From positions 1 to 64,000 of IMG/VR virus record IMGVR_UViG_3300008262_000014: a DNA stretch of 64,000 bases, one strand, 5' to 3'. How positions within the stretch are numbered: the first letter of the stretch is position 1; each line of letters opens with the position of its first letter. Positions 17,909 through 51,660 of the stretch are shown piece by piece. The stretch is from a virus. The notes beneath the pieces were generated by a model. That model was not told the origin of the DNA. It saw only the letters and a program-made list of their open reading frames with translations, and did no database searches. Both the position numbers and the translations under genes were made by a program.

Positions 17909-19435
17909 ATGATCACAGTAATTTATTCTACACACAAAGACGAAGAATATAATAAAAATTTTAAAGAACATATTCAAAAAACAATAGGTATTAAAGAATT
18001 TGAAATTCTTGAATACAAGAATAATAATGAATTTAGTTTATCTCAAATTTATAATAAAGGAATTTTAGAATCTAAAAATAATATTATTGTTTGTTGTCAT
18101 AATGATATAAAATTAGAGAACAATTGGGGTAAGAGATTGATTAAAGATTTCGAAGAAAACTCTGATTATGCAATAATAGGTAAAGCAGGTTCTTGTTACT
18201 TTCCACAATCAGGTGTTTATTGGGAAAGAATGAATGAAACTATGGTTGGTCAAGTTTATCATCATCCAGATGGTCAAAATAAATGGTTAAGTAAATATTC
18301 TGATAAATTACCATTTTTGATCCCTGTTGTCACAATTGATGGTTTATTTATTTCATTTGACAAAACAAAAATCAAACATAATTTTGATGAATCAATTGGT
18401 AAATTCCATTTTTACGATCATGGTTTTTGTTTGCCGAATTATTTAGATAGTGTTAAAATTGGTGTAACATCATCTTTTGAAATTACACATAAATCAGTTG
18501 GTCAACCAAATAATGAGTTTTACGAATCTAAAGAATTGTTTGTAGAAAAATACAAAGATAAGTTACCAATAGATTTTAAACCACAAAATGTTTATGTTCC
18601 TGAATTAAATATAAAACCAATTAAAAATATCGGTGGTAAGGTTGCCGTAATTATACCAACCAAAAATAAAACTGATTTACTATTTAATTGTTTAAATTCT
18701 TTTATTGATAATTGTGATAGTTCATTATACGAAGTTTTTATTGCCGATACCGGTTCAAACGAAGAAGAAAAAAATAAAATAAAAGATTATATTGAAACAA
18801 ACTCAAGTAAAATAAAAATAAATTTAATAGAATATAATTACTATAATTTCGCAAAAATTAATAATGATGTTGTTAAAAATCACGTAAACGACAATTTTAA
18901 ATTTTTATTGTTCTGTAATAACGACATAGTTTTATTAAATGATGCAATAACAGGTATGTTAGATGTATTTAAACAAAATCCTAAGACGGGAACAGTTGGG
19001 GCTAGACTTCACTTTGGTGACAATACATTACAACATGAGGGAATTGTAAGTATTATAAGTAATAGTAGAAAGTCGTATGATGTCACACATCTAGGGTTAA
19101 GAAGTTATTATTCTAAGCAAACTAAATTAGTAAGAGTATGTGGCAGTACTGGTGCTCTATTAATGATTAGAAAGAATGTTTTTGAAAAATGTGGTTACTT
19201 TAATGAAAATTATATATCCTGTTTTGAGGATGTTGAATTAAATTATAAATCATTGATAAGTGGTTATGAAAATTTTTATAATGGAAATGTCGTTGCATAT
19301 CATTTAGAAAGTCAAACGAGAAATGACGACAGTAGATCATTAGATAAATTACAAATGGATTATAGAGATAATCTTTTGCCATTTGTGCAAGAAAATATAT
19401 CTAAATTAAATAACTGGATAGTTTACGTTCAATAA
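17909..19435 (+). CDS. two-domain glycosyltransferase (GT2-like)
   Basis: 508 residues with two nucleotide-sugar domains. The first (about 1-230) has IVCCHNDIKLENNWG, a DxD-like site, and a disordered linker. The second (about 245-500) begins VAVIIPTKNKTDLLFNCLNS and has FLLFCNNDIVLLNDA (NND site) and RVCGSTGALLMIRKNVFEKC, typical GT2. It probably transfers sugars to a phage or host glycan. It is the last plus-strand gene of this island and converges on the GT10 gene, overlapping it by 30 bases. It belongs functionally with the glycan cluster that follows on the other strand. Confidence 0.85.
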   Translation: MITVIYSTHKDEEYNKNFKEHIQKTIGIKEFEILEYKNNNEFSLSQIYNKGILESKNNIIVCCHNDIKLENNWGKRLIKDFEENSDYAIIGKAGSCYFPQSGVYWERMNETMVGQVYHHPDGQNKWLSKYSDKLPFLIPVVTIDGLFISFDKTKIKHNFDESIGKFHFYDHGFCLPNYLDSVKIGVTSSFEITHKSVGQPNNEFYESKELFVEKYKDKLPIDFKPQNVYVPELNIKPIKNIGGKVAVIIPTKNKTDLLFNCLNSFIDNCDSSLYEVFIADTGSNEEEKNKIKDYIETNSSKIKINLIEYNYYNFAKINNDVVKNHVNDNFKFLLFCNNDIVLLNDAITGMLDVFKQNPKTGTVGARLHFGDNTLQHEGIVSIISNSRKSYDVTHLGLRSYYSKQTKLVRVCGSTGALLMIRKNVFEKCGYFNENYISCFEDVELNYKSLISGYENFYNGNVVAYHLESQTRNDDSRSLDKLQMDYRDNLLPFVQENISKLNNWIVYVQ

Positions 19436-20293
19436 AACTATTTCCTTAACTTTATTATATAAATTGTACTTAGTAAAGTACAATTTTTTATTTTCAATAA
19501 TTTTATCTATATCATAATTATCATTTCTAATTATGTCTGATAAGATATCTAAAGTTTCTTCTATATTATTTGGATTGATTGGTATATGATTTTTATAAAT
19601 ATCGGAAATATTAGGGGCACCATAATATATTGGATAGGAATTACATAGTGGAATATCAAAAAACTTTTCAGTAATATAATTTTTCTCACAAGAATTTTCT
19701 ATCCCTATCGAATATTGGTAATTAACAAGTGCATCGTATTTATCTCCGACTGTTCCTTTAATATTTTTATGATTTAATGACCAACCATTTCCGTAGATAT
19801 CGATATCTAAATTATGTTCTAAAATTTTTAATGCTAATTTTGTTCTTAATTCATAGTTATATCCACCACCAGGTGTATATGAAACAACCATTGATATTTT
19901 TTTCTTATGTTCATATAAATTATTATTCAATAGTTTACCTATGTTGTTTATTTCTGAATTCATATGATAAAACATAAAAGATGGGGACTCTATTATATTT
20001 TCATGGTTACCAAATAAATTTTTATCATGTACAAATACTTTATTAGAGTAATTAAAACAATTACGATCCCAGTTAGGTGACCATGAAGGTTCCATTATAA
20101 AAGTATAGATTTTTTCTTTAGTGACTGTAGGTTGTGTTGTTAATCTATTAAACACGAACAAAAAATCGTAATCATCACCATCTGTTATAATTATATTTGA
20201 ATTATAATTTTCTTCAGTGATAAAATTTGATTTAACTCTTCTATTAATATCTTTATCTGATGTCCAGTTACAATTAAATTTTATTTTAAACAC
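19406..20293 (-). CDS. GT10-family (fucosyltransferase-like) glycosyltransferase
   Basis: 295 residues. The C-terminal YSIGIENSCEKNYITEKFFD and SYPIYYGAPNISDIY are the GT10 signature: the acceptor/donor loop (ENS...YITEK) and the PIYYGAPN turn. GT10 enzymes move fucose, or a related sugar, from GDP-fucose onto glycans, as in LPS-borne Lewis-type structures. The N-terminal half is the less conserved acceptor domain (FMEPSWSPNWDRNC). First gene on the minus side of the glycan cluster; its end overlaps the plus-strand GT2 gene tail to tail. Confidence 0.8.
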   Translation of the reverse strand: MFKIKFNCNWTSDKDINRRVKSNFITEENYNSNIIITDGDDYDFLFVFNRLTTQPTVTKEKIYTFIMEPSWSPNWDRNCFNYSNKVFVHDKNLFGNHENIIESPSFMFYHMNSEINNIGKLLNNNLYEHKKKISMVVSYTPGGGYNYELRTKLALKILEHNLDIDIYGNGWSLNHKNIKGTVGDKYDALVNYQYSIGIENSCEKNYITEKFFDIPLCNSYPIYYGAPNISDIYKNHIPINPNNIEETLDILSDIIRNDNYDIDKIIENKKLYFTKYNLYNKVKEIVLLNVNYPVI

Positions 20294-20304
20294 GTCACAC
20301 TTAA

Positions 20305-20919
20305 TTATTTATTTTTTATAAAAAAATTATCCGCACCAACATTTCTTAAAAATTTAAATCCAAAATTATTTAAATAATTTTCAACTTCATTTGTGCCGTA
20401 ATTATTTTCAACAGATATGCAAAATATGTTATGTTTATCAAAATCTATTGATTTAATTACATTTAATTCAGATCCTTCTACATCTATAGAGATGTAATCT
20501 ATTTCTTTTTCATTTACTAAATCAGAAAATCTAACGGAATCAACATCTATTATTTTTTTCGTACCTCCATACGTATTTAACTCGCGATTAATTCTTTCTA
20601 AATGTCTTGGATCATATGTTTCAAATAACCCACTTAACATTTCAGAGTATCCATCAATTTGTAAAAATTGTAATTTTCCGTTAACTTCACTAACCGCTAA
20701 ATTATGTTTTATACATTTTCTATTACTCAATAATTTATTAAAAGACAGTGGTAAGGGTTCCACACATATACCGTTCCATCCAATATCTTCTAATATTTTG
20801 GTATTACTTAAACTAATACCGTCATTTGCACCTATGTCCACATAGAATCCATTTTTTTTGTCTTTAAATAATTCTTCAACTAAGAATTTATCTTGACCGT
20901 CTTGACTGTAATATTTCAT
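20305..20919 (-). CDS. FkbM-family SAM methyltransferase
   Basis: 204 residues. SQDGQDKFLVEELF, GFYVDIGANDGISLSNTKIL and WNGICVEPLP form the FkbM N-terminal SAM-binding set; later SDLVNEKEIDYISIDVEGSE and LNVIKSI complete it. FkbM enzymes methylate sugar or polyketide oxygens. In this cluster it probably O-methylates a sugar added by the neighbouring glycosyltransferases. Confidence 0.9.
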   Translation of the reverse strand: MKYYSQDGQDKFLVEELFKDKKNGFYVDIGANDGISLSNTKILEDIGWNGICVEPLPLSFNKLLSNRKCIKHNLAVSEVNGKLQFLQIDGYSEMLSGLFETYDPRHLERINRELNTYGGTKKIIDVDSVRFSDLVNEKEIDYISIDVEGSELNVIKSIDFDKHNIFCISVENNYGTNEVENYLNNFGFKFLRNVGADNFFIKNK

Positions 20920-20933
20920 ATATTAAAATTTTA

Positions 20934-21746
20934 TTAAATAAAAAAATCTAGTCCAGCAAAATATGCATTATTTGCAAAATTACCATTATGTAGATTAAAT
21001 AATTCTTTATTTTCTAAAAAACATATTGTGTAAATATTTTGATCGTCCGAAATGACTGATTCACTTATTGAATCATCGATAACTTTTTTTATTATTTCTG
21101 AATATTTTAAAATTGCCGACTTCGTTCCACCGAACCAAGCACCAACAATTCTAACATCATCTGATTCACAATAGTATTTTAGTTTATTTTTATCACTATC
21201 TTTAGGGTGTTGTCTATAAAATTGGTGAATTTTATTATCATACAATATATCTATGTTTTTTGAGGGGTATTTTTTAAATTTAAAAACCTCGGGAAACATG
21301 TGATGATATATACCACTATCCATCCAACAATGTAATTCAGAATCAAAAAAATTATTTTTTATTGTATTTTCAATAAATTTAGATTTTGCGAACTGTATTA
21401 TATTGTATATTGGGTAATTGGATTCCGGTCTTAATTTATCATGGTGTTTATTTTTTATGTTTTCAATAAAAAATTGACTATTCATTAAATTTGTTATTCT
21501 ATCTAAATAATCATAATAAGGAATTTCTTCTAAATTCATCGTTACAATAATAGTATTATTTAAATTTGGGTCAATTAATTTTCTATTTTCAATAAAATGT
21601 TCTTCTAGATTCGGTGTTGTATATATAACCATTTTACAATCTAATGATAACATATTCTTACTGTAATTTTTGTAATCATCTATACTCCGTTGGTAACCAA
21701 CCCAATTACCTCTATCTAAATCAAAAAGTGCCGTTGTTATAACCAT
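20934..21746 (-). CDS. HtrL/YibB-like glycosyltransferase
   Basis: 270 residues. TALFDLDRGNWVGYQRS near the N-terminus, CKMVIYTTPN, NIIQFAKSKFIENTIKNNFF and LHCWMDSGIYHH follow the HtrL/YibB (WlaTC) pattern: fDi.R..W..y.RS, K...i..a...n.f, f.WiD.G. The family sits in LPS or capsule loci and is thought to transfer sugars. No signal peptide, so it acts in the cytoplasm. Confidence 0.65.
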   Translation of the reverse strand: MVITTALFDLDRGNWVGYQRSIDDYKNYSKNMLSLDCKMVIYTTPNLEEHFIENRKLIDPNLNNTIIVTMNLEEIPYYDYLDRITNLMNSQFFIENIKNKHHDKLRPESNYPIYNIIQFAKSKFIENTIKNNFFDSELHCWMDSGIYHHMFPEVFKFKKYPSKNIDILYDNKIHQFYRQHPKDSDKNKLKYYCESDDVRIVGAWFGGTKSAILKYSEIIKKVIDDSISESVISDDQNIYTICFLENKELFNLHNGNFANNAYFAGLDFFI

Positions 21747-21762
21747 ATATAAAAAAATAATA

Positions 21763-22398
21763 CTATTTTATCACTAAAATTATGTTATTATCTCCATCAT
21801 TTCTACTATTTGGAATTTTAACTAAATCAATAAATTTATATCTATTTTTTACTTGATTAATAAAATTATTAAAATCAGAGTGATATCTTTTGTCAATATC
21901 TTCAATTATAAAGATACCACCATCTTTTAAAATATTAATAGAATTTTCAAAAAATATTTTGTTGGCGTTAAATGTGTGTAAACCATCTTCTATTATTACA
22001 TCAAACTGGAAATCAAAATTTTTCCATAATTGTTCAATTGAATTTGTGTTTGTTTGATCACATTTAAATGTCTTAATTCTTTCTTCATTTATTAAAATTT
22101 TTTCGTCGATGTCCGCACCATATATATTTGCGTTATTAAAATATTCTCTCCATCCTCTTAGTGATCCGCAAGGTGTTCCTAAACCACTCATATTAGAAGG
22201 TATGGACATATCATTTGTACCCAAACCCAATTCAAATACATTTTTAATCTCATCTTTTATGTCTTTAAAAATAAAATGATAAAATGTCGTATAATTATGG
22301 TGACCGGAACCTTTATCACTACCCCATTTATTCATAATATCACATAAATCTGTTTTTGTTTCATGTAAGTTGTTGTTAAAAAAATTTGTTAAATTCAT
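21763..22398 (-). CDS. class I SAM methyltransferase (sugar O-methyltransferase-like)
   Basis: 211 residues. MNKWGSDKGSGHHNYTTFYH, VFELGLGTNDMS, NIYGADIDEKIL and FDVIIEDGLHTFNA, then GGIFIIEDIDKRYHSDF match class I methyltransferases of the tetracenomycin/mycinamicin sugar-OMT type. ELGLGT is the SAM-binding motif. The run of TTTTA units at 22,408-22,437 lies in its leader. A relative of this gene is at 23,379 (same KYGTDK/ELGILN style). Confidence 0.75.
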   Translation of the reverse strand: MNLTNFFNNNLHETKTDLCDIMNKWGSDKGSGHHNYTTFYHFIFKDIKDEIKNVFELGLGTNDMSIPSNMSGLGTPCGSLRGWREYFNNANIYGADIDEKILINEERIKTFKCDQTNTNSIEQLWKNFDFQFDVIIEDGLHTFNANKIFFENSINILKDGGIFIIEDIDKRYHSDFNNFINQVKNRYKFIDLVKIPNSRNDGDNNIILVIK

Positions 22399-22407
22399 AT
22401 TTGTTAT

Positions 22408-22437
22408 TTTTATTTTATTTTATTTTATTTTATTTTA
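22408..22437. repeat. (TTTTA)6 tandem repeat
   Basis: Six perfect TTTTA units on the plus strand (TAAAA on the transcript of the methyltransferase gene). The last unit includes the TAA stop of the upstream GT4 gene. It lies 10 bases before the next start codon, so copy-number change could alter leader length and translation. Confidence 0.9.
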
Positions 22438-23379
22438 TTGTAAAAATACTTTTTTAAATTTATCCATTACGTTGCATGGTGAAAACATCTCATTTAAATA
22501 ACACGTATTGTATGGATTCTTTTTATTTATATTATTTAGGATTTGATCTAAATTATTTTGGTTATAATATACACTACAGTTATCTTTTAAATACATTATA
22601 TGTGATTTTTCAGGTGATAATCCATAGGTTATTATATGTTTATTTTTACACGCAAATTCAAGTACTGATAACCCAAAGCTCTCACCTTGCATCCTAGCAT
22701 GTAACATTGCATCACAAGTATTTATAAATTTTGTTTTAAAATACATATCGGATGTTGAATCTAAATATATGACTCTAGGATGTGTTATAAATTTATATGT
22801 ATTTAAAAATAAAAAAACAATATCGGATCTAGAATTTAAAATATTAACTATTGAATTTTTAACAAAGGGTATATCAAATGTTTCTAAACCACCATATCTA
22901 CCAACAACAACAGTGTCTTCAGGTATATTTAATTCATTACGTAAATTTTCTTCAATAATTGGTAAACTTATCATATGAGGAACAAATGGTATTTTATAAT
23001 TAGATGTTGATGATAACCATTCGGAGACCGTGGCATATACGTCGCCATGTACTTGTGTTGGATTGGTACAAAATACTGAATGTACACAATTTTTAACATC
23101 TGAAACTATCATTCCATCATTTTCACCACTTTTTATGATATAAAATAAATCAACTTTTTCTTTTTTTATATGATCATTAATTTCATTAAAAAGATTATAA
23201 TGTAAAACGTTAAAATATTTTTTAAATTTTTCTAAAACTTCAGAATCATTAGGTAAATTTTTATTAGTGATAATTATTGATTCGTTATTTAATATTTCTT
23301 GATTATAGTACGCATAGTCAAACAGGGCAACTGAGGTACCTCTCTTATTTAAAAAATTTTCATGAAACAATATCTTCAT
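22435..23379 (-). CDS. GT4-like glycosyltransferase
   Basis: 314 residues. KILFHENFLNKRGTSVALFD at the N-terminus and VVGRYGGLETFDIPFVKNSI, then HARMQGESFGLSVLEFACK and YYNQNNLDQILNNI are typical of GT4 enzymes (GESFGlsvlEa, EX7E motif region). It is a GT-B fold enzyme adding a nucleotide-linked sugar. It shares its first base with the stop of the preceding gene (23,379), so it is translationally coupled. Confidence 0.85.
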   Translation of the reverse strand: MKILFHENFLNKRGTSVALFDYAYYNQEILNNESIIITNKNLPNDSEVLEKFKKYFNVLHYNLFNEINDHIKKEKVDLFYIIKSGENDGMIVSDVKNCVHSVFCTNPTQVHGDVYATVSEWLSSTSNYKIPFVPHMISLPIIEENLRNELNIPEDTVVVGRYGGLETFDIPFVKNSIVNILNSRSDIVFLFLNTYKFITHPRVIYLDSTSDMYFKTKFINTCDAMLHARMQGESFGLSVLEFACKNKHIITYGLSPEKSHIMYLKDNCSVYYNQNNLDQILNNINKKNPYNTCYLNEMFSPCNVMDKFKKVFLQ

Positions 23380-24029
23380 TATCTTATTTTTTCGATAAGT
23401 ATAGTTTCTGAATGTATATGAATAGAAAAAATGTTACCCTTCTTTTTATCTAACATCTCAATTTTTTCTGATAGAAAACTATCAAAGTCGGATCTATTAT
23501 TATTAAAATTAACGTCAGAGTCATTATAAGACATACCTGGCCAATCTTTAACAATGTTACTAAAATTATTAAACCATTTATCACCATAAGTGCAGTGTGT
23601 ATCTTCTATAACATAGAAACCACCAGGTTTAACAGAATCGTATAATAAATTAAAAGATTCAAACGATAATTGATTTATGTGACTAGCATCATCAATTATT
23701 ATGTCAAACCCGCTTGGATAGGATTTTTTAATATCATTAATTAATTGACTGTTATTTTGTGACCCTATAAAAATTTTAGTTCTTTCTGTGTTATATATAG
23801 TCTTGGACGGATCGATGTCTAAACCAACTATATTGCCATTTATAAAGTACTCTTCCCATGTTTTTAAAGAACCCCCGTTTAATATACCCAACTCTAATAA
23901 TGTTATATTTAAGTTTTTATATTGTTCAAAATATCTTTCATAAACATCTAAAAAAGACCTACCATTAAATGAATGTACTAATGACTTATCAGTACCATAC
24001 TTTAAACCAATTTGTTGCAGTATACCCAT
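23379..24029 (-). CDS. class I SAM methyltransferase (sugar O-methyltransferase-like)
   Basis: 216 residues. IGLKYGTDKSLVHSF, LLELGILNGGSLKTWEEYF, IVGLDIDPSKTIYNTERTK, FDIIIDDASHINQLS and GGFYVIEDTHCTY give a complete class I methyltransferase layout, closest in style to the gene at 21,763. Its stop and the GT4 start coincide. It probably methylates a sugar hydroxyl. Confidence 0.75.
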   Translation of the reverse strand: MGILQQIGLKYGTDKSLVHSFNGRSFLDVYERYFEQYKNLNITLLELGILNGGSLKTWEEYFINGNIVGLDIDPSKTIYNTERTKIFIGSQNNSQLINDIKKSYPSGFDIIIDDASHINQLSFESFNLLYDSVKPGGFYVIEDTHCTYGDKWFNNFSNIVKDWPGMSYNDSDVNFNNNRSDFDSFLSEKIEMLDKKKGNIFSIHIHSETILIEKIR

Positions 24030-24032
24030 ATG

Positions 24033-24737
24033 TTAATATTTTTTTCTGTGATGATTTAATATAACACCATAATGTGAATTAGTAAACAATTCATTATGTT
24101 TATCACCCCACTGTGTAGGGTCCTTATATAATTCTATTTGGTTTTTTATTGATAAAATAGAAAGAATAGATTGGTCGTGTCTATGATCAATAAAATCACT
24201 AAAATTAATACCATTAGTATTTGGTTCGTCCGATATTATTTTAAAATTTTTACAAAAATTTAAATACTCCTCAACAAAAATAAGACTATTTACTGTTTTT
24301 TTAATTAAAATTACGGCAGCATTAACATGTTTACCATTTGTAAACTTTTCATCTAACGCATCTAATTCGTGGAAAGTATCATATTTTGTGAATTGACTAT
24401 TTTTATATTCATTAGAAAACAATATAATATCCTTATTAGCCAATAAGTTAAAAAGTGATAATGGATTATTAACAAAATTTATGGTAGCGTCGGTATACAT
24501 TATTATATCATCATCTTTTATATTATTTAATGTTTTTAAAATTAAATAAGGTTTCCATAACCAATAACCAAAACCTCTACCTCCTTCAAAGTGTTTAGGA
24601 TATAAATCCTTTAGTTCGGTTATATTATTTTCGTTATATAAAATAATTTCATCAAAAAAAGGTGATGCACTATTCCTTAAATTTGTTAACGTATTTTCAT
24701 AACCTTTAGATCCAAATGATATTAAATATTTTTTCAT
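24033..24737 (-). CDS. putative glycosyltransferase (GT-A-like)
   Basis: 234 residues. KYLISFGSKGYENTLTNL, GGRGFGYWLWKPYLIL and DDIIMYTDATINFVNNP give the nucleotide-binding start and a DxD-like turn (YTDA) seen in small capsule/LPS glycosyltransferases. RHDQSILSIL is a further family-like segment. The sugar and bond are unknown. It overlaps the next gene by four bases. Confidence 0.6.
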   Translation of the reverse strand: MKKYLISFGSKGYENTLTNLRNSASPFFDEIILYNENNITELKDLYPKHFEGGRGFGYWLWKPYLILKTLNNIKDDDIIMYTDATINFVNNPLSLFNLLANKDIILFSNEYKNSQFTKYDTFHELDALDEKFTNGKHVNAAVILIKKTVNSLIFVEEYLNFCKNFKIISDEPNTNGINFSDFIDHRHDQSILSILSIKNQIELYKDPTQWGDKHNELFTNSHYGVILNHHRKKY

Positions 24738-25432
24738 AGTATTTGTATTTCATTATTTTTAATTACTGAGGGTCTGTAACCAACCATACTACTAATTTTA
24801 GGAAAATATGATTCAAAAAAATACCTATTAAATCCCATTGTTTCTAAATTTTTATTAAAAAAATCTCTATTCATGTTTTTTAATAAAAATTCTATCACCG
24901 CTCCTTTAATCATATAAAATGTATTGGGATAAAAACCTGAAAATGGTGTTTTTATTGGAAAATTACATATTTCATTCAAATTGATATAATCTGGACTACC
25001 CTCATGATCAAAAATATAATCGACACCGACTATACCTACATTAGGGTTAACATTTAATAAATCTATCATATTATCTATCTGACCCCAAAAAAACGTTTCA
25101 TTATATATTCGATATTTTAATGAGTATTCTATAGTATGATAAGAAGATCCTTTAGTGTGTCCAAAAACCACATAATCATATTTTTTGTTTAATATACTTA
25201 AAGCCATTTGATAACCAGATGCGTCACTATTAATACATAAATTTTCAGGAACAATAATAAAATTTGGATAGTTAATTCTAATCTTATTAATTAAATTCTC
25301 ACTAGTACCACAATTTATACCGATGTATATATCATCTTTTTTAAAAATACCATCTATTAAATTTAAATAATAATCACCTAAAATATCCATGTTTTTAGGT
25401 ACCCAAAACGAAAATATTAAACATTTATTCAT
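24734..25432 (-). CDS. putative rhamnan/RgpF-like glycosyltransferase
   Basis: 232 residues. The pattern of an N-terminal KCLIFSFWVPKNMDILGDYY, DYVVFGHTKGSSYHTIEYSL and GIVGVDYIFDHEGSPDY recalls domains of rhamnan-synthesis (RgpF) enzymes, where h-K is followed by a GT-like region. Match is by general features only. Overlaps its neighbours by 4 bases on each side, so it belongs to one polycistron. Confidence 0.5.
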   Translation of the reverse strand: MNKCLIFSFWVPKNMDILGDYYLNLIDGIFKKDDIYIGINCGTSENLINKIRINYPNFIIVPENLCINSDASGYQMALSILNKKYDYVVFGHTKGSSYHTIEYSLKYRIYNETFFWGQIDNMIDLLNVNPNVGIVGVDYIFDHEGSPDYINLNEICNFPIKTPFSGFYPNTFYMIKGAVIEFLLKNMNRDFFNKNLETMGFNRYFFESYFPKISSMVGYRPSVIKNNEIQIL

Positions 25433-26010
25433 TTGCTAAAAATAACACCAATACCTCCCCAATCTGAATTATCGGAATCTTTTATCTCTAAAGTTTTGTA
25501 AGTATTTTTAACTTCATCCCAAAATTTAGATACATAACAATTAACACTTCTGTGATATTCGGAGTCGACAATATCGTGAAAGAAAACTATTCCACCCTTA
25601 TTTAACATTGGGAAATAATTTTCAAAATCTTTTTTAACACCTTCATACGTATGGTCACCATCAATAAAGATTAAATCATATCCATTTGGTGAAAAATTTT
25701 TAACATGATTTATTGTTTCAATATTAAAAGAATTTGCACTGATTCCCTCGTAATTTGTTATTTGTTTTAATCTATTAACATCAAATCTGAGTGGATTATT
25801 ACCATCAACAGTAATAAAATTTTCACAGAAATGTGTTAATGAAATTGAAGAACCACCATCGTATGCCCCAACTTCTAAACCATATTTAAATTTTTCATTT
25901 CTATCATTTAATATTTTTAACAACTCAAACCATTCATATTTTTTTTGTTGTATTTTGAATTCTTTTGATAGATCCCAAATCTTTTCTAAAAATTCTTGTT
26001 CGTATATCAT
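25429..26010 (-). CDS. class I SAM methyltransferase
   Basis: 193 residues. KYGLEVGAYDGGSSISLTHF, NFITVDGNN, YDLIFIDGDHTYEGVKKDF and GGIVFFHDIVDSEYH form the Methyltransf_24-type layout, with GAYDGGSS binding SAM and IDGDHTY near the metal/substrate. Probably a sugar or small-molecule O-methyltransferase acting in the glycan pathway. Confidence 0.8.
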   Translation of the reverse strand: MIYEQEFLEKIWDLSKEFKIQQKKYEWFELLKILNDRNEKFKYGLEVGAYDGGSSISLTHFCENFITVDGNNPLRFDVNRLKQITNYEGISANSFNIETINHVKNFSPNGYDLIFIDGDHTYEGVKKDFENYFPMLNKGGIVFFHDIVDSEYHRSVNCYVSKFWDEVKNTYKTLEIKDSDNSDWGGIGVIFSK

Positions 26011-26639
26011 AATTTAACTTTTATTAATTCAGTTATTTCATTTATTTTTTCAATACTAACTAATTCATATTTTAATGTACTCAATCCATCATTTTCATAT
26101 TCATATTCTTCAGATAGTTTTTTAACATTATTTTGATAGTTTGAGTGATTTGGCCCGTTTGGTATGTGTCTTAAAGATATATAGTGTCCCGTTCTTCTAT
26201 ACAAATCAAATCCATTCTTTTTAATTCTGTTTAACAAATCGTCATCTTCACCTCCCCATCCCCAAAAGTCATTACTGTATCCGTTAATTTTAAAAAAATC
26301 TTCTTTATTGAATAAATTAACACCACCATAATATGTTGGATAAGCAACACTACCACCAAATTGACCAACATTTGTTGCCATATGATATGGTTTATCTGGA
26401 TAACTATAATCTGCATTCGTTGGTATCATGTCAACATCATGAAAACAAAAATAATCTGAAGTGTTTTTTTTATAATCAAAACCAACATTCAAAAGTTTTG
26501 CGCGATTAAATAATTTCTCGTCAAATTGTTCAACAATTATAATACCAAAATCGATACCAACTATGTTTTTAGGTATTTCTGAAATAAATGTTTTCAAATG
26601 TTCTTCCCTATTTCTATATGGTACAATGATACTTAACAT
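26007..26639 (-). CDS. GT7-family beta-1,4-galactosyltransferase-like enzyme
   Basis: 210 residues. IIVPYRNREEHLKTF starts the domain, YFCFHDVDMIP is the metal-binding DxD, YYGGVNLFNKEDFFKINGYS follows, and WGWGGEDDDLLNRI is the GT7 hallmark. All occur in family order. In animals these enzymes transfer galactose or N-acetylgalactosamine from UDP-sugars with Mn2+; bacterial and phage forms are shorter. No membrane anchor, so it acts in the cytoplasm on a phage or host glycan. Confidence 0.9.
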   Translation of the reverse strand: MLSIIVPYRNREEHLKTFISEIPKNIVGIDFGIIIVEQFDEKLFNRAKLLNVGFDYKKNTSDYFCFHDVDMIPTNADYSYPDKPYHMATNVGQFGGSVAYPTYYGGVNLFNKEDFFKINGYSNDFWGWGGEDDDLLNRIKKNGFDLYRRTGHYISLRHIPNGPNHSNYQNNVKKLSEEYEYENDGLSTLKYELVSIEKINEITELIKVKL

Positions 26640-26644
26640 ATAAT

Positions 26645-27415
26645 TTAAAATAATGATTTTATTTTTGTTAGTTTATGGAAACTACTAGGTAATCCTGCTA
26701 AAAATGCGTCATTCGGATATTCCCAAACATTATAAAAATCAACAAGTTTATCTATATCATTTCTAAAATTTACAGATGCTGAACTATTTTCAAATTTTGT
26801 TCTAATATCATTTCTAATGTACGATCCATGGTGCATTTCTATTTGATCTCTATTAAAAATAATAGGGGTTGTTATTTCGGACATTCTTCTTGTTGGATCA
26901 ACAACAACTGGAGAAGGATGTGCATGTACGTATTTAGAATCTTTTTTAATTTTAAAAATTAATGAAACATAATATTCCTCTGGTGTGGATAATTTATATT
27001 CCCAACTTTTATAATAGGTCTGCATTTGACAATAAGATGAATCGTAATCATTTTCAACGATTATATTTTTAATCTTTTCAAATTCAGATTCAATATAATA
27101 TTCGTCACAGTCCATTGACATATGATGTGTACATCCTTCCATTTCAGATAAGATTAATCCAACATTTCTTTTTGAAACTTCATTGTACGCGGGACCGTTT
27201 TGTAAAATAGGTGTGAAAGAATATAATTTATCGATTAAACCATCTGATTTTAATTTATTTAAATTATCAATTAAATTCTCGTTGCATTCTTTACCAAAAT
27301 TAGATACCTTTTGATAAACAACACTAACATAATCAACTTGGTTTCGTATTTGTCTGATAGAACTTTCTAATAGTTCTTCTCCATCAAATACATTATAACT
27401 TATACCTAATTTCAT
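26645..27415 (-). CDS. putative glycosyltransferase, first gene of minus-strand glycan operon
   Basis: 256 residues from the ATG at 27413-27415. An in-frame ATG at 27,454 is rejected because it would put the terminator hairpin (27,421-27,448) inside the coding region. KLGISYNVFDGEELLESSI, VVYQKVSNFGKECNEN, THHMSMDCDEYYI (DCDEYY, a DxD-like site) and SYIRNDIRTKF give a GT2-like or related GT-A reading. The gene begins right after the terminator, so the glycan run probably has its own promoter or read-through from upstream. Confidence 0.65.
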   Translation of the reverse strand: MKLGISYNVFDGEELLESSIRQIRNQVDYVSVVYQKVSNFGKECNENLIDNLNKLKSDGLIDKLYSFTPILQNGPAYNEVSKRNVGLILSEMEGCTHHMSMDCDEYYIESEFEKIKNIIVENDYDSSYCQMQTYYKSWEYKLSTPEEYYVSLIFKIKKDSKYVHAHPSPVVVDPTRRMSEITTPIIFNRDQIEMHHGSYIRNDIRTKFENSSASVNFRNDIDKLVDFYNVWEYPNDAFLAGLPSSFHKLTKIKSLF

Positions 27416-27448
27416 AAAAAAAATATTCACTAAAATATAGTGAATATT
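27416..27448 (-). terminator. hairpin-plus-T terminator before the glycan operon
   Basis: 12-bp perfect AT-rich stem (27421-27432 with 27437-27448, ATTCACT core, loop about 4-5 bases) followed by T residues on the minus strand, ending at the ATG of the next gene. It closes the transcript of the 81-residue gene. Confidence 0.7.
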
Positions 27449-27478
27449 TCTCAAAATAAAAAGTTATTTTACTTTTTT

Positions 27479-41330: not shown

Positions 41331-41852
41331 TTATTTTTTAATTTGTGTTATTAATAAAGAAACTGGTGTATTCCTACCAAAAATTTTTACATCAACATCT
41401 ACTTTATCATCTTTAATTGAAGAAATGACACCAATGAAACCAAGAAACGGGCCATCAATAACGGTAATTGTCTCACCGATTTCATATTTTAGTTTTTTAT
41501 TAACTTTATGTTCGACTAATAAATCATCTTTAATTATTCTATCAACATCGTTCTTTCTCATTAATAATGGTTTTTTATCACCCATCATACCCATAATATT
41601 TGGTATTGAAGATATTTCTTTTAATTCATCCTCATTCATTTCCTTTTTTGCCTCAAAATACAAGTAACCATTATATATTACTTTTTCTCTTAACACTTTC
41701 TTGTCCTTAACAGTCACCAATTCACTATCTGTTGGACAGATAAACCTTATAATATTTTTAATATTACCTAGTGATATTTGTATATTGTATTGTTCATTCA
41801 ATTGTCTTTCTTTACCGGGTAATACTTTAATAACATACCAAAATGTATCCAT
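41331..41852 (-). CDS. nusG: NusG/RfaH-like transcription factor
   Basis: 173 residues. FWYVIKVLPGKERQLNEQY begins the NGN domain (about 1-110) that contacts the RNA polymerase clamp; GETITVIDGPFLGFIGVISS (about 125-150) is the KOW motif of the C-terminal barrel. This is the full two-domain form. It may bind host RNA polymerase and alter elongation or pausing for phage genes. It carries its own promoter-like element. Confidence 0.9.
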   Translation of the reverse strand: MDTFWYVIKVLPGKERQLNEQYNIQISLGNIKNIIRFICPTDSELVTVKDKKVLREKVIYNGYLYFEAKKEMNEDELKEISSIPNIMGMMGDKKPLLMRKNDVDRIIKDDLLVEHKVNKKLKYEIGETITVIDGPFLGFIGVISSIKDDKVDVDVKIFGRNTPVSLLITQIKK

Positions 41853-43815: not shown

Positions 43816-43996
43816 AAATCTTTAAAATTTTTTTAAAAAAAGTAAGTTTTTCTTTTGGTTCAGATTTGAACATTTCAGTTTTATTCAAATTTTTTATATC
43901 GTTAATTGTCTTCGTCTTGTGTTTCGAGATTTCTATATTGTCCTTCTTTATCTCCTTGTTCAACCATTCTAATCCCTGTTGAATTTTCTTGTCCAT
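43793..43996 (-). CDS. hypothetical protein in long overlap
   Basis: 67 residues, very basic and helical (KKIQQGLEWLNKEIKKDNIE, KLTFFKKILKIFGYGEKG). It overlaps the 151-residue gene by 95 bases (43,902-43,996) in another frame, an unusual length. A shorter form from the internal ATG at 43,873 would remove the overlap but would keep only 26 residues. Confidence 0.35.
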   Translation of the reverse strand: MDKKIQQGLEWLNKEIKKDNIEISKHKTKTINDIKNLNKTEMFKSEPKEKLTFFKKILKIFGYGEKG

Positions 43997-44357
43997 ATTC
44001 TTCTATTAATTTAATGTCTTTAAGTTTATCTAATGAACTATTTTGAAATAACAATTTCAATTCATTTACTTTTTGTTCAAATAATCTTCTTTTTTCCTCT
44101 TCTTCTTTATTTACAAGTATTATTTCATTTGCACAACCAATAACAACATCATACCCTTCTTTTGTTGCAACAGATATTAATGATATTAAATTAAATTTAT
44201 CACTTTTATCTTGAATTTTAAATTTAATTGATTTATAAGGTGAAATTATCTCTTCATATTTCCAAGAAGATGGTAACTTAAGATCTAAGCTAACATTATT
44301 TTCTAATTCTCTTAAAGAGAAGAAATATGGTTTAAGGGTTTTAATTATATCAAACAT
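43902..44357 (-). CDS. hypothetical protein
   Basis: 151 residues. FDIIKTLKPYFFSLRELENN, then SLDLKLPSSWKYEEIISPYK, a beta-rich centre (NLISLISVATKEGYDVVIGC) and an acidic helix (NKEEEEKRRLFEQKVNELKL). No family known to me. Similar proteins seem common in large AT-rich phages. It shares its 3' end with a second frame (see the overlap gene). Confidence 0.5.
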   Translation of the reverse strand: MFDIIKTLKPYFFSLRELENNVSLDLKLPSSWKYEEIISPYKSIKFKIQDKSDKFNLISLISVATKEGYDVVIGCANEIILVNKEEEEKRRLFEQKVNELKLLFQNSSLDKLKDIKLIEEYGQENSTGIRMVEQGDKEGQYRNLETQDEDN

Positions 44358-44360
44358 ATA

Positions 44361-44543
44361 TTAATTAATAAAAAAATAAGTTATAAAATAAGATATTGAA
44401 AAATATAAAAAAACTTGATCTATTTTTGATATCTTTAGTATAGTCGGGTTTTCCTGAAAAAGTTTTACTACAAACTCTATTATAAATCTAAAATTATAGA
44501 TTAAACTTAATATAAATAAAAATAATTTAATTTGTTCCATCAT
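44361..44543 (-). CDS. small membrane protein
   Basis: 60 residues with two hydrophobic stretches (LFLFILSLIYNFRFIIEFVV and VFLYFSISYFITYFFIN). No soluble domain. Overlaps the Hc1 gene's stop by 17 bases. Function unknown. Confidence 0.45.
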   Translation of the reverse strand: MMEQIKLFLFILSLIYNFRFIIEFVVKLFQENPTILKISKIDQVFLYFSISYFITYFFIN

Positions 44544-44724
44544 TTTTTTTATGTTTTTTTATTTCTTCTAATATTTCTTTACGAAATATTTTTGTTAGAT
44601 CTTTTAATTCCTGAGCATATTTTCTGGCTCTTATTGACGCACTGTGGTTACCCTTTTTGAATACCTTATATGTGTCAACTGACATCTTTTCAACAATATC
44701 CTTTATGGTATTTAATGTTTCCAT
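44527..44724 (-). CDS. histone H1-like Hc1 protein
   Basis: 65 residues from the ATG at 44,722-44,724; a longer frame to 44,766 would add 14 hydrophobic residues not seen in the family. KKGNHSASIRARKYAQELKD followed by LTKIFRKEILEEIKKHKKND matches the Hc1 histone H1-like family of Bacteroidota and chlamydiae (KGNkaAgtRaRKal.el..l....R.ei.). The N-terminal ETLNTIKDIVEKMSVDTYKV fits its helix. It should bind and compact DNA. Unusual in a phage. Confidence 0.75.
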   Translation of the reverse strand: METLNTIKDIVEKMSVDTYKVFKKGNHSASIRARKYAQELKDLTKIFRKEILEEIKKHKKNDGTN

Positions 44725-44762
44725 AATTATTATGTTTTTAATATCAAAATAAGGAAAAAAAA

Positions 44763-45224
44763 TCACTTTTTCAAGTTTTGATCCATTATTCTATAAACAT
44801 CTTTTACCATGTCTAATTCGGATCTTGTTTTTATATGATCAAAATTGAATAATTTGTTTAAATATTCTTCTATACGAATTTCTTTATTCTCTATTTTATT
44901 AAAATAGAAAGCTTCTAAAAAAAAATTCCAAAAATATTCATGGTAATTTCCTCTTTCTTTAAAATAAATCCTTTCTTTACTAAAATCTTTAATTATTTTG
45001 TCCCAACACCAATTAAAATGACCTTTTATTTGATCTTCAGTTATTACAACATCCGACCCTAAATATGTTTTTTCTATTAAATCGTATAATGAAAATAAAA
45101 AGTCGTGAAATAGTTGCATTTTTTCACGACTTATATTATATGCCTTGTACCAAATTTCTATTTGGTATTTATAATTTTCAAATGAAGATAAATCAACAAA
45201 TTCTTTTTTATTTTCCATAATCAT
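44763..45224 (-). CDS. hypothetical protein
   Basis: 153 residues. Aromatic and acidic (NYKYQIEIWYKAYNISREKM, HDFLFSLYDLIEKTYLGSDV, GHFNWCWDKIIKDFSKE). No recognised domain. Lies just upstream of Hc1 with an overlap of its stop. Confidence 0.45.
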   Translation of the reverse strand: MIMENKKEFVDLSSFENYKYQIEIWYKAYNISREKMQLFHDFLFSLYDLIEKTYLGSDVVITEDQIKGHFNWCWDKIIKDFSKERIYFKERGNYHEYFWNFFLEAFYFNKIENKEIRIEEYLNKLFNFDHIKTRSELDMVKDVYRIMDQNLKK

Positions 45225-46669: not shown

Positions 46670-47548
46670 CTAAATAAATATCTTCTTTATCTCATTTAAT
46701 ACAATATTTTCAATTTCATTTACAGGTATACCATATTTTTTTGATGTTTCATCTATTGCCTCTTTTAGAATCTCTAAAGCGTTTATATCACCTTGATTAC
46801 AATATGGAAATTTTTTACACTTATCCTTTATTTTTATAAAAATCCCACCAGGACCACCCCATTTTGGAAAATTTTTATCTTTTACCGCTCTACTTTTTTT
46901 AATGGTTTCAGGACCACCAATAGCCAATGGGTTTTTACGACCTCTAGTTGTTGTCCCAAATAAAGGAACATCAAAAGATGCGGATGATGAGACTGATGAG
47001 TCTAACGCTTCATTAAACTCTTGTTTATCCCCATACTCTTTTGAATTATTTATGTTTCCTATTTTTCTTTTAATCATTGGTGCACCTAGCGCTGGTTCAG
47101 AAGATCCTGCGGCATCTGCCCCCATACTTTCCTTTGTTTCAATTTTCTTTAATTTGGTATAATATTTTGGATCTTCATACAAATGATCCATAGCAATTTC
47201 CTTTGCTTTTGATTTATCCTTTGTATGTTCCATTTCAACTTTTATACCTTTTTCCAATTGTTTACTTAGGAACATTTTCATCTTTGTTATTTTTTCAGGT
47301 GATACTGAATCGGTAGAATCATTATACGAATGTTTCTTAGCTATTTGTACTAATGTTTTTTTATCTGAAAGACCACCTTTTAATTTATTTGTTTCAGAAA
47401 TCTCATCTTTTTTAAGGTGATCATCAATCCATTTCTGTAGTTCATGTACATCAGGAGAATAGTCTTTACCTTTAACTCTTGATATATTCTTGTGTGCCAA
47501 TTTAATTAATTTACCAACATCCTCTTTAGAGTATTCTTTCTTTTCCAT
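46670..47548 (-). CDS. structural / core-associated protein (DUF5661-like segment)
   Basis: 292 residues. KKEYSKEDVGKLIKLAHKNI begins the chain; GIKVEMEHTKDKSKAKEIAM, then DHLYEDPKYYTKLKKIE matches the DUF5661 pattern (vE..HT....A..Ia.dHL.E.p.YY..L). The middle is low complexity (SSVSSSASFDVPLFG), then WGGPGGIFIKIKDKCKKFPY and a C-terminal helix. It shares one base with the next gene. Likely a virion or core component. Confidence 0.55.
   Translation of the reverse strand: MEKKEYSKEDVGKLIKLAHKNISRVKGKDYSPDVHELQKWIDDHLKKDEISETNKLKGGLSDKKTLVQIAKKHSYNDSTDSVSPEKITKMKMFLSKQLEKGIKVEMEHTKDKSKAKEIAMDHLYEDPKYYTKLKKIETKESMGADAAGSSEPALGAPMIKRKIGNINNSKEYGDKQEFNEALDSSVSSSASFDVPLFGTTTRGRKNPLAIGGPETIKKSRAVKDKNFPKWGGPGGIFIKIKDKCKKFPYCNQGDINALEILKEAIDETSKKYGIPVNEIENIVLNEIKKIFI
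46672..46681 (-). promoter_or_regulatory. candidate late promoter element
   Basis: Coding strand ATATTTATTT, two bases off the shared element, 3 bases upstream of the 466-residue gene. Confidence 0.25.
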
Positions 47549-50775: not shown

Positions 50776-50785
50776 TTATAAATAG
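50776..50785 (-). promoter_or_regulatory. candidate late promoter element
   Basis: Coding strand CTATTTATAA, one base off the shared element, 11 bases upstream of the 95-residue coiled-coil gene. Confidence 0.35.
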
Positions 50786-51591
50786 TTCAACAGACTGTAA
50801 CTTTCGTTTCTTAATTTTTTTATTGCTTTATCTCTTAACTGTCTTATTCTTTCCTTAGTACATCCAAAGTATTCCCCCAAATCATCAAGATTTGATTCGA
50901 TACCTGTTAAACCATAATATCTTTCAATTATTAATTTTTCTCTATCATCTAAAACACTTAACATTAAAGAAACCCTTTTTTTAATTTCATCTTTTGTATT
51001 TAGAGAATTTTCAGGGTTATCTGCATTCTTATTTGGTATAATATCGATAATTTGATCCCCGTCCTCATTTATTTCTTGACCAAGACTAATACAATATGGT
51101 ATACTCACATCGATAAAACTATCATTTTTGTTAATTAGATGTATATCTTCATCCATTTCGACATTTTTTATTTGTTTTTGTGTCTCTTGGATAACATTTG
51201 ATGGAATTCTTATTGTTCTTGAGTTCTCATTTAATGATGCCAATATCGATTGTTTAACCCACCATACGGCGTATGAAATAAATTTAAATCCACTTGATGG
51301 ATCAAATCTTTCAGCCGCCTTTATTAATCCAATATTACCTTCAGATATTAAATCAAGTAATTCCAATCCTTGATTTTGATACATTTTAGCGACCGAGATA
51401 ACAAATCTTAAATTACCTAATACTAATTCATTAAGTAACTTTTCTTTATCGTTTTTGGTTAATAATTCTTTTTTTAATTCTAAAAAAATTTCTTCTTGTC
51501 TTTCATGACTAATTACGGGAATCTTTTTTAAATCTTTAATGTAAGATTGTAATTCATCAGTGTTTGGTGTGATAGACTTTTTTAATTGCAT
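50776..51591 (-). CDS. rpoD: sigma-70 family factor (Bacteroidota primary-sigma-like)
   Basis: 271 residues from the ATG at 51,589-51,591 (MQLKKSITPNTDELQSYI, like the host MRQLKITKSIT start); a longer frame to 51,633 adds 14 residues of no family content. Region 2 is NLRFVISVAKMYQNQGLELL and FKFISYAVWWVKQSILASLN; region 4 is LDDLGEYFGCTKERIRQLRD. Region 1.1 is short. It should bind host RNA polymerase and select promoters, probably the phage's own. It overlaps the promoter element of the neighbouring 95-residue gene at its stop. Confidence 0.92.
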   Translation of the reverse strand: MQLKKSITPNTDELQSYIKDLKKIPVISHERQEEIFLELKKELLTKNDKEKLLNELVLGNLRFVISVAKMYQNQGLELLDLISEGNIGLIKAAERFDPSSGFKFISYAVWWVKQSILASLNENSRTIRIPSNVIQETQKQIKNVEMDEDIHLINKNDSFIDVSIPYCISLGQEINEDGDQIIDIIPNKNADNPENSLNTKDEIKKRVSLMLSVLDDREKLIIERYYGLTGIESNLDDLGEYFGCTKERIRQLRDKAIKKLRNESYSLLNYL

Positions 51592-51660
51592 AAAAATTAT
51601 ACGCGTTTTATCGGTTAAAAATAAAATAAACAAAAATTTTTAAAAATGGAAATATTTCAG

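What the first reader, a model, noticed from the sequence alone, without database searches (positions are those of the whole stretch)
44527..44724. Histone H1-like Hc1 protein encoded by the phage
The KKGNHSASIRARK core matches Hc1, used by chlamydiae and Bacteroidota to compact DNA. A phage copy may compact phage DNA or rearrange the host nucleoid. It is short (65 residues) and lacks a lysine/alanine tail.
Basis: partly seen in the sequence, partly recalled or inferred. Interest (0 to 1): 0.62.

Follow-up and report, generated by a model that had tools for sequence, protein, structure and literature searches.

The report
Phage-borne Hc1 (histone H1-like) protein
A large phage carries a short protein of the Hc1 "histone H1-like" family; it is a strongly conserved gene of its phage lineage, always beside a tiny membrane-protein gene, so it is a real working gene, but phage Hc1 genes were already reported and what this one does is untested.

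Summary
Confirmed, with corrections. The gene lies on the minus strand (window 44527-44724, 65 aa) and matches Pfam Hc1 PF07432 well above its cut-off (55.1 bits against 23.5). It is not chance: against a profile of bacterial copies only it scores 55.6 bits, the best of 20,000 shuffles 12.6. Its shortness is normal: the bacterial copies read were 57-63 aa and also lack the lysine-rich tail. It is not the chlamydial HctA equivalog (23.1 against 100 bits). In Chlamydia trachomatis the tail binds DNA and this N-terminal domain dimerises (PMC2848022), so DNA compaction by the domain alone is unproven. The phage family is an old clade of its own, under strong purifying selection. It sits in a four-gene order (153 aa, Hc1, two-helix membrane protein overlapping the hc1 end, 151 aa) in 80 of 80 Hc1-found relatives and all 92 loci found through the neighbours, 17 of them with new sequence. 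Phage Hc1 is already in print for "moraphages" (PMC12619734), probably this lineage or kin. Best guess: a dimeric, weakly basic DNA-organising protein. The membrane pairing, not met in my paper searches, is the new point.

The parts
44527..44724 (-). hc1: 65-aa Hc1-domain (PF07432) protein; predicted helical hairpin H2-24 / H27-62; A29, R32, R34, K35 and R48 constant in all 110 representative phage and bacterial copies tabulated
44361..44543 (-). T: 60-aa small membrane protein with two hydrophobic segments; its ATG overlaps the 3' end of hc1 by 17 nt
43902..44357 (-). Z: 151-aa protein of unknown function; sheet plus long helix predicted for residues 1-113, disordered tail; downstream of T
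44763..45224 (-). X: 153-aa protein of unknown function, upstream neighbour in all sampled relatives
44734..44781 (-). 48-bp conserved promoter-like element (CTTGAAA ... TATATT-like) between X and hc1; single copy in the record; missing only in L081 among the 80 relatives and the window

Best explanation
hc1 is a long-resident, functional gene of a lineage of large myovirus-like phages (hosts inferred to be Bacteroidota), not a recent host pick-up. Inferred mechanism: the protein folds as a helical hairpin, pairs with itself through the hairpin as the chlamydial N-terminal domain is reported to do, and shows the constant RxRK...R residues of helix 2 as a weakly basic surface that binds or bridges DNA without sequence preference; made from its own upstream promoter-like element together with the small membrane protein T and protein Z, it organises DNA (phage DNA more likely than host DNA) during infection. 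Shown: family, conservation, selection, gene order, predicted fold. Inferred: dimerisation, DNA binding, which DNA, timing, and any contact with T.
For: PF07432 match. Constant A29, R32, R34, K35, R48 across 30 own-lineage, 39 other phage and 41 chromosomal representatives. Median net charge +5 in the phage family against +3 in chromosomal copies. dN/dS 0.02-0.13 in 10 of 11 pairs, the 11th saturated. Confident helical hairpin, pLDDT 94.9, pTM 0.75. Own clade: 98/90 support, one change in 99% of 200 bootstrap trees. Never absent: 80 of 80 X-found and 12 of 12 Z-found loci carry it, 17 of them with sequence not in the Hc1-found set. N-terminal dimerisation, and nucleoid condensation by full-length Hc1 in E. 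coli, are reported in PMC2848022 (passages).
Against: The part that binds DNA in C. trachomatis Hc1 is absent. Net charge is modest (+6). No significant structural match (no Foldseek hit at E<=0.001 in either library). No experiment on any 58-65 aa Hc1 was found in my paper searches. The whole block around hc1 is syntenic, so its neighbours need not share its function. A generic scan for this promoter type across the record gave no more hits than chance (289 against 276), so transcription from the element is inferred from conservation alone.
Confidence: 0.42

Rival explanations
1. Host take-over factor: made early, Hc1 coats or relocates the host nucleoid and shuts down host transcription, comparable in outcome to T4 Ndd, which sends E. 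coli DNA to the cell periphery.
For: T4 Ndd precedent (PMC3040692 passages). Hc1 genes are common in the phylum of likely hosts (87 of 148 genomes), so a phage variant could compete with the host's own. The overlapping membrane-protein gene would fit a shift of DNA to the membrane.
Against: No timing data. No sequence link to Ndd was tested. Outside this lineage, 72 of 80 phage Hc1 loci lack the membrane partner.
Confidence: 0.2
2. Virion-associated DNA condensing protein that helps packaging, as suggested in print for the moraphage Hc1.
For: Proposed by the authors of PMC12619734 (passage). Large genomes: contigs of this lineage reach 335,630 bases.
Against: The record's tail sheath and a baseplate wedge gene lie tens of kb away; the nearest genes have no structural annotation. 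No virion proteomics. The protein is only weakly basic.
Confidence: 0.13
3. Protein-protein adaptor: the domain keeps only its dimerisation role and serves the membrane protein T or protein Z, with no DNA role.
For: In C. trachomatis this domain is the dimerising one. T overlaps hc1 in 80 of 81 own-lineage loci and is there in 81 of 81, and persists in 8 more distant contigs.
Against: The constant basic residues are shared with stand-alone Hc1 of bacterial chromosomes and of phages that have no T, so they are not kept for T.
Confidence: 0.2
4. Recent capture from the host or bacterial contamination, with no phage function.
For: Hc1 is a common gene in Bacteroidota.
Against: Best chromosomal matches are only 35-47% identical; the phage family is one clade with its own motif GN[RH]SASIRARKYAQE against GNKAAGTRARK; synteny and dN/dS.
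Confidence: 0.02

Closest known systems
Hc1 of 'moraphages' (PF07432 in the four complete genomes; PMC12619734)
   Same: Large aquatic tailed phages with predicted Bacteroidota hosts; same Pfam family; overlapping gene repertoire (family B DNA polymerase, tail sheath, baseplate wedge, sigma factor, glutaredoxin).
   Different: Their sequences were not at hand, so whether this phage is a moraphage was not tested; in the passages I read (not the whole text) the paper names no conserved gene order or membrane partner.
Stand-alone Hc1 of Bacteroidota/Balneolota chromosomes (57-63 aa)
   Same: Same length, no tail, same constant basic residues.
   Different: 35-47% identity for the best ones; different core motif; no X, T or Z genes nearby (0 of 80).
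Chlamydial Hc1/HctA
   Same: N-terminal domain family.
   Different: HctA carries a lysine-rich DNA-binding C-terminus; the phage protein scores 23.1 against a cut-off of 100 bits for the HctA equivalog.
Hc1 in Flavobacterium phage immuto, Synechococcus phage S-SRM01 ('histone H1') and Prevotella Lak phages
   Same: Phage-encoded Hc1-like proteins.
   Different: Other gene contexts (immuto: beside GroES/GroEL; S-SRM01: next gene not hydrophobic); none of the cassette profiles X, T, Z hits the three stretches read.
T4 Ndd
   Same: Possible analogue in outcome only: phage protein acting on DNA position in the cell.
   Different: No sequence relation was tested; mechanism of Ndd recorded as unknown in PMC3040692.

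Membership tests
Pfam Hc1 (PF07432) | Score above the curated gathering cut-off over the domain | tested here: met
   55.1 bits against 23.5, profile positions 1-56 of 57; only hit in the record
Pfam Hc1 (PF07432) | Conserved residues of the family core | tested here: met
   A29, R32, R34, K35, R48 constant in 30 + 39 + 41 representatives
Chlamydial HctA (NCBIfam NF051889 equivalog) | Score above the curated cut-off | tested here: not met
   23.1 bits against 100
Chlamydial HctA (NCBIfam NF051889 equivalog) | Lysine-rich C-terminal nucleic-acid-binding region | tested here: not met
   The protein ends at residue 65, right after the Hc1 domain; role of the tail from PMC2848022
DNA-binding nucleoid-associated protein | DNA binding or compaction | not testable with these tools
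   No assay possible; no solved relative (best PDB sequence hit E 0.4)
Eukaryotic linker histone H1 | Winged-helix globular domain (recalled) | tested here: not met
   Model is a two-helix hairpin, pLDDT 94.9; no direct comparison with an H1 structure was made
Moraphage lineage | Clustering with moraphages in TerL/MCP/PolB trees | not tested
   Reference genomes not available here; gene content only similar

The most novel reading that the evidence does not exclude
Hc1 and the overlapping two-helix membrane protein T form one machine: dimeric Hc1 grips phage (or host) DNA and T anchors it to the inner membrane, so that this phage lineage moves or holds DNA at the membrane during infection, a membrane-tethering phage chromatin module.
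Probability: 0.12. Interest if true: 0.72.

Novelty: new member of a known kind. Interest (0 to 1): 0.4.

Why it matters
Bacterial Hc1 without a tail is common in Bacteroidota (87 of 148 genomes sampled), and I found no experiment on it. A phage lineage that never loses its copy, keeps it under strong selection and always next to a small membrane protein gives a compact, testable system for what the bare Hc1 domain does, and for whether phages of this phylum reshape DNA with it.

Tried and rejected
Chance or artefact: rejected. Host contamination or recent capture: rejected. PHROGs: no meaningful hit for Hc1 (best E 0.033), for T, or for its neighbours X and Z. Pfam: no family for X in 13 members, none for T in three sequences, none meaningful for Z. 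INPHARED with the window's own protein or with X: no match.

Structure: Foldseek gave no match at E<=0.001 for Hc1 in PDB or BFVD, nor for Z in PDB. VIA-align second looks gave only middling Z (Hc1 up to 8.4 on assorted helical hairpins; protein Z up to 7.2, with pterin dehydratase, YbjN/AmyR and RNA-polymerase-L-like rows close together); no function is read from them.

Promoter: a generic TTGAAA-N16/18-TATATT scan of the record gave 289 hits against 276 expected, that is noise; only the aligned 48-bp element stands out (57.6 bits; shuffles at most 7.7).

ORF caller: my greedy caller dropped hc1 in 28 of 80 loci and T in 11 of 80 because overlapping or opposite-strand ORFs won; direct tests replaced it. 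L081 lacks the 48-bp motif and is the non-match. PMC1403754 (passages) states in 2006 that Hc1 is found only in Chlamydiales; the present Pfam matches in Bacteroidota contradict that for the N-terminal domain.

Papers. Read: PMC12619734 abstract, passages and section 12; passages only of PMC2848022, PMC3469542, PMC1403754, PMC3040692. All other papers were seen as search listings only. 'Not met in print' for the membrane pairing rests on the searches, on the open-access library only, and I did not read PMC12619734 in full.

Full report
What is there. The ORF is on the minus strand, 44527-44724, 65 aa. It matches Pfam PF07432 (Hc1) over residues 1-56 with 55.1 bits against a cut-off of 23.5, and it is the only match in the record, a 127,871-base viral record. 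A profile built only from chromosomal copies gives 55.6 bits, the best of 20,000 shuffles 12.6, and the next best of 1,489 six-frame fragments of the record 7.8. It is not an HctA equivalog (23.1 against 100 bits).

Relatives in phages. In IMG/VR, 82 of 119 candidate stretches encode close relatives and the best 80 were kept (L002-L081, 62-85% identity over the matched segment). X (153 aa, upstream) and Z (151 aa, downstream) are beside it in 80 of 80. To avoid selecting on hc1 itself I searched with X (alignment A2; best 80 of 174 confirmed loci kept) and with Z (12 loci): 80 of 80 and 12 of 12 hold hc1. Most of these contigs overlap the first set; the 17 whose sequence is not in it also all hold hc1. 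With profile searches X, Hc1, T and Z are found together in 80 of 80 own-family loci, 80 of 80 X-found, 12 of 12 Z-found, 8 of 80 loci found with a Bacteroides-like bait, 0 of 3 isolate stretches and 0 of 80 bacterial contigs. In seven of the 8 distant contigs read, X is 40-43% and Z 27-37% identical to its best own-family match among the few compared, and most have extra small genes between X and hc1 or between T and Z. Other genes of the block are also syntenic (for example 80 of 80 for the convergent 229-aa gene), so the order alone does not prove a shared function.

The membrane partner. T is a 56-73 aa protein with two hydrophobic segments and a shared pattern across the near and distant groups. 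It lies directly downstream in 81 of 81 own-lineage loci and overlaps the hc1 end in 80 of them (17 nt in the window). In the other phage loci read (83 in all, the 8 distant contigs included) 11 have a hydrophobic downstream ORF and 10 an overlapping ORF of any kind; for chromosomal loci these are 18 of 80 and 0 of 80. Background in the record: 18 of 129 ORFs are hydrophobic by the same rule.

Selection and age. dN/dS is 0.02-0.13 in 10 of 11 pairs, the 11th being saturated. In a tree of 113 copies the own family is one clade (98/90, 99% of 200 bootstrap trees), but the tree rests on 61 columns and many forks are unresolved. Phage copies as a whole fall in several groups: at least 6 changes of label are forced by starred branches for the other phages, so phages acquired Hc1 more than once or exchanged it. 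Hc1 is present in 87 of 148 genomes drawn from the phylum of a Flavobacterium bin.

Regulation. The 48-bp element upstream of hc1 holds the most conserved 20-nt bin of the 1.26-kb alignment (0.92 at -60 to -40), is single copy in the record (57.6 bits against at most 7.7 in shuffles), and is missing only in L081. It looks like a promoter; that is inference. A general scan for such promoters in the record was noise.

Fold and residues. AlphaFold2 gives a hairpin of two helices, pLDDT 94.9, pTM 0.75, without significant matches (second look). A29, R32, R34, K35 and R48 do not vary in 30 own, 39 other phage and 41 chromosomal representatives. Z is modelled as a sheet with a long helix and a disordered tail (pLDDT 80.1), again without a significant match.

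How it may work. In C. [quoted passage not shown] the DNA-binding C-terminus is also stated in PMC3469542). The phage and bacterial short forms keep only the first. My best reading is a dimer whose constant basic residues still contact DNA and organise it during infection; confidence 0.42. Packaging, host take-over and a pure adaptor role are open rivals.

Known or new. PF07432 in large aquatic phages with predicted Bacteroidota hosts is in print (PMC12619734, passage), and S-SRM01 carries an annotated 'histone H1'; immuto and the Lak-B5 stretch carry a match too. So the finding is a new member of a known kind. The strict pairing with an overlapping membrane protein and the lineage-wide retention were not met in my searches.

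Noticed in passing
window 44734-44781 (minus strand): 48-bp single-copy element before hc1, holding the most conserved bin of the 1.26-kb alignment of relatives, promoter-like (CTTGAAA...TATATT).
   Followed up: partly
window 17909-27454: Run of about a dozen ORFs that look by eye like glycosyltransferases and methyltransferases; not searched against a library.
   Followed up: no
window 41331-41852 and 50776-51633: Phage-encoded NusG-like protein (PF02357, E 1.4e-10) and a sigma factor (phrog_351, E 1.3e-52), suggesting its own transcription control.
   Followed up: no
window 46670-47548: DUF5661 protein (PF18905, E 6e-12) of very variable length across relatives (167-763 aa among those printed) in the same syntenic block.
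   Followed up: no
L168 (Lak-B5, MK250024.1 near 339845-340018): The Lak phage Hc1 pairs with a Bacteroidaceae chromosomal copy in the tree (94/85), which suggests a separate, host-derived acquisition.
   Followed up: partly
L169 (RXKF01000034.1): Hc1 in a contig binned as Rickettsiales groups with phage copies (99/97) and may be a phage contig in the bin.
   Followed up: no
L170, L171, L175, L187, L208, L225, L228: Chromosomal hc1 of Balneolaceae and kin is followed at 80-140 nt by a 159-169 aa hydrophobic protein, unlike the phage T.
   Followed up: no
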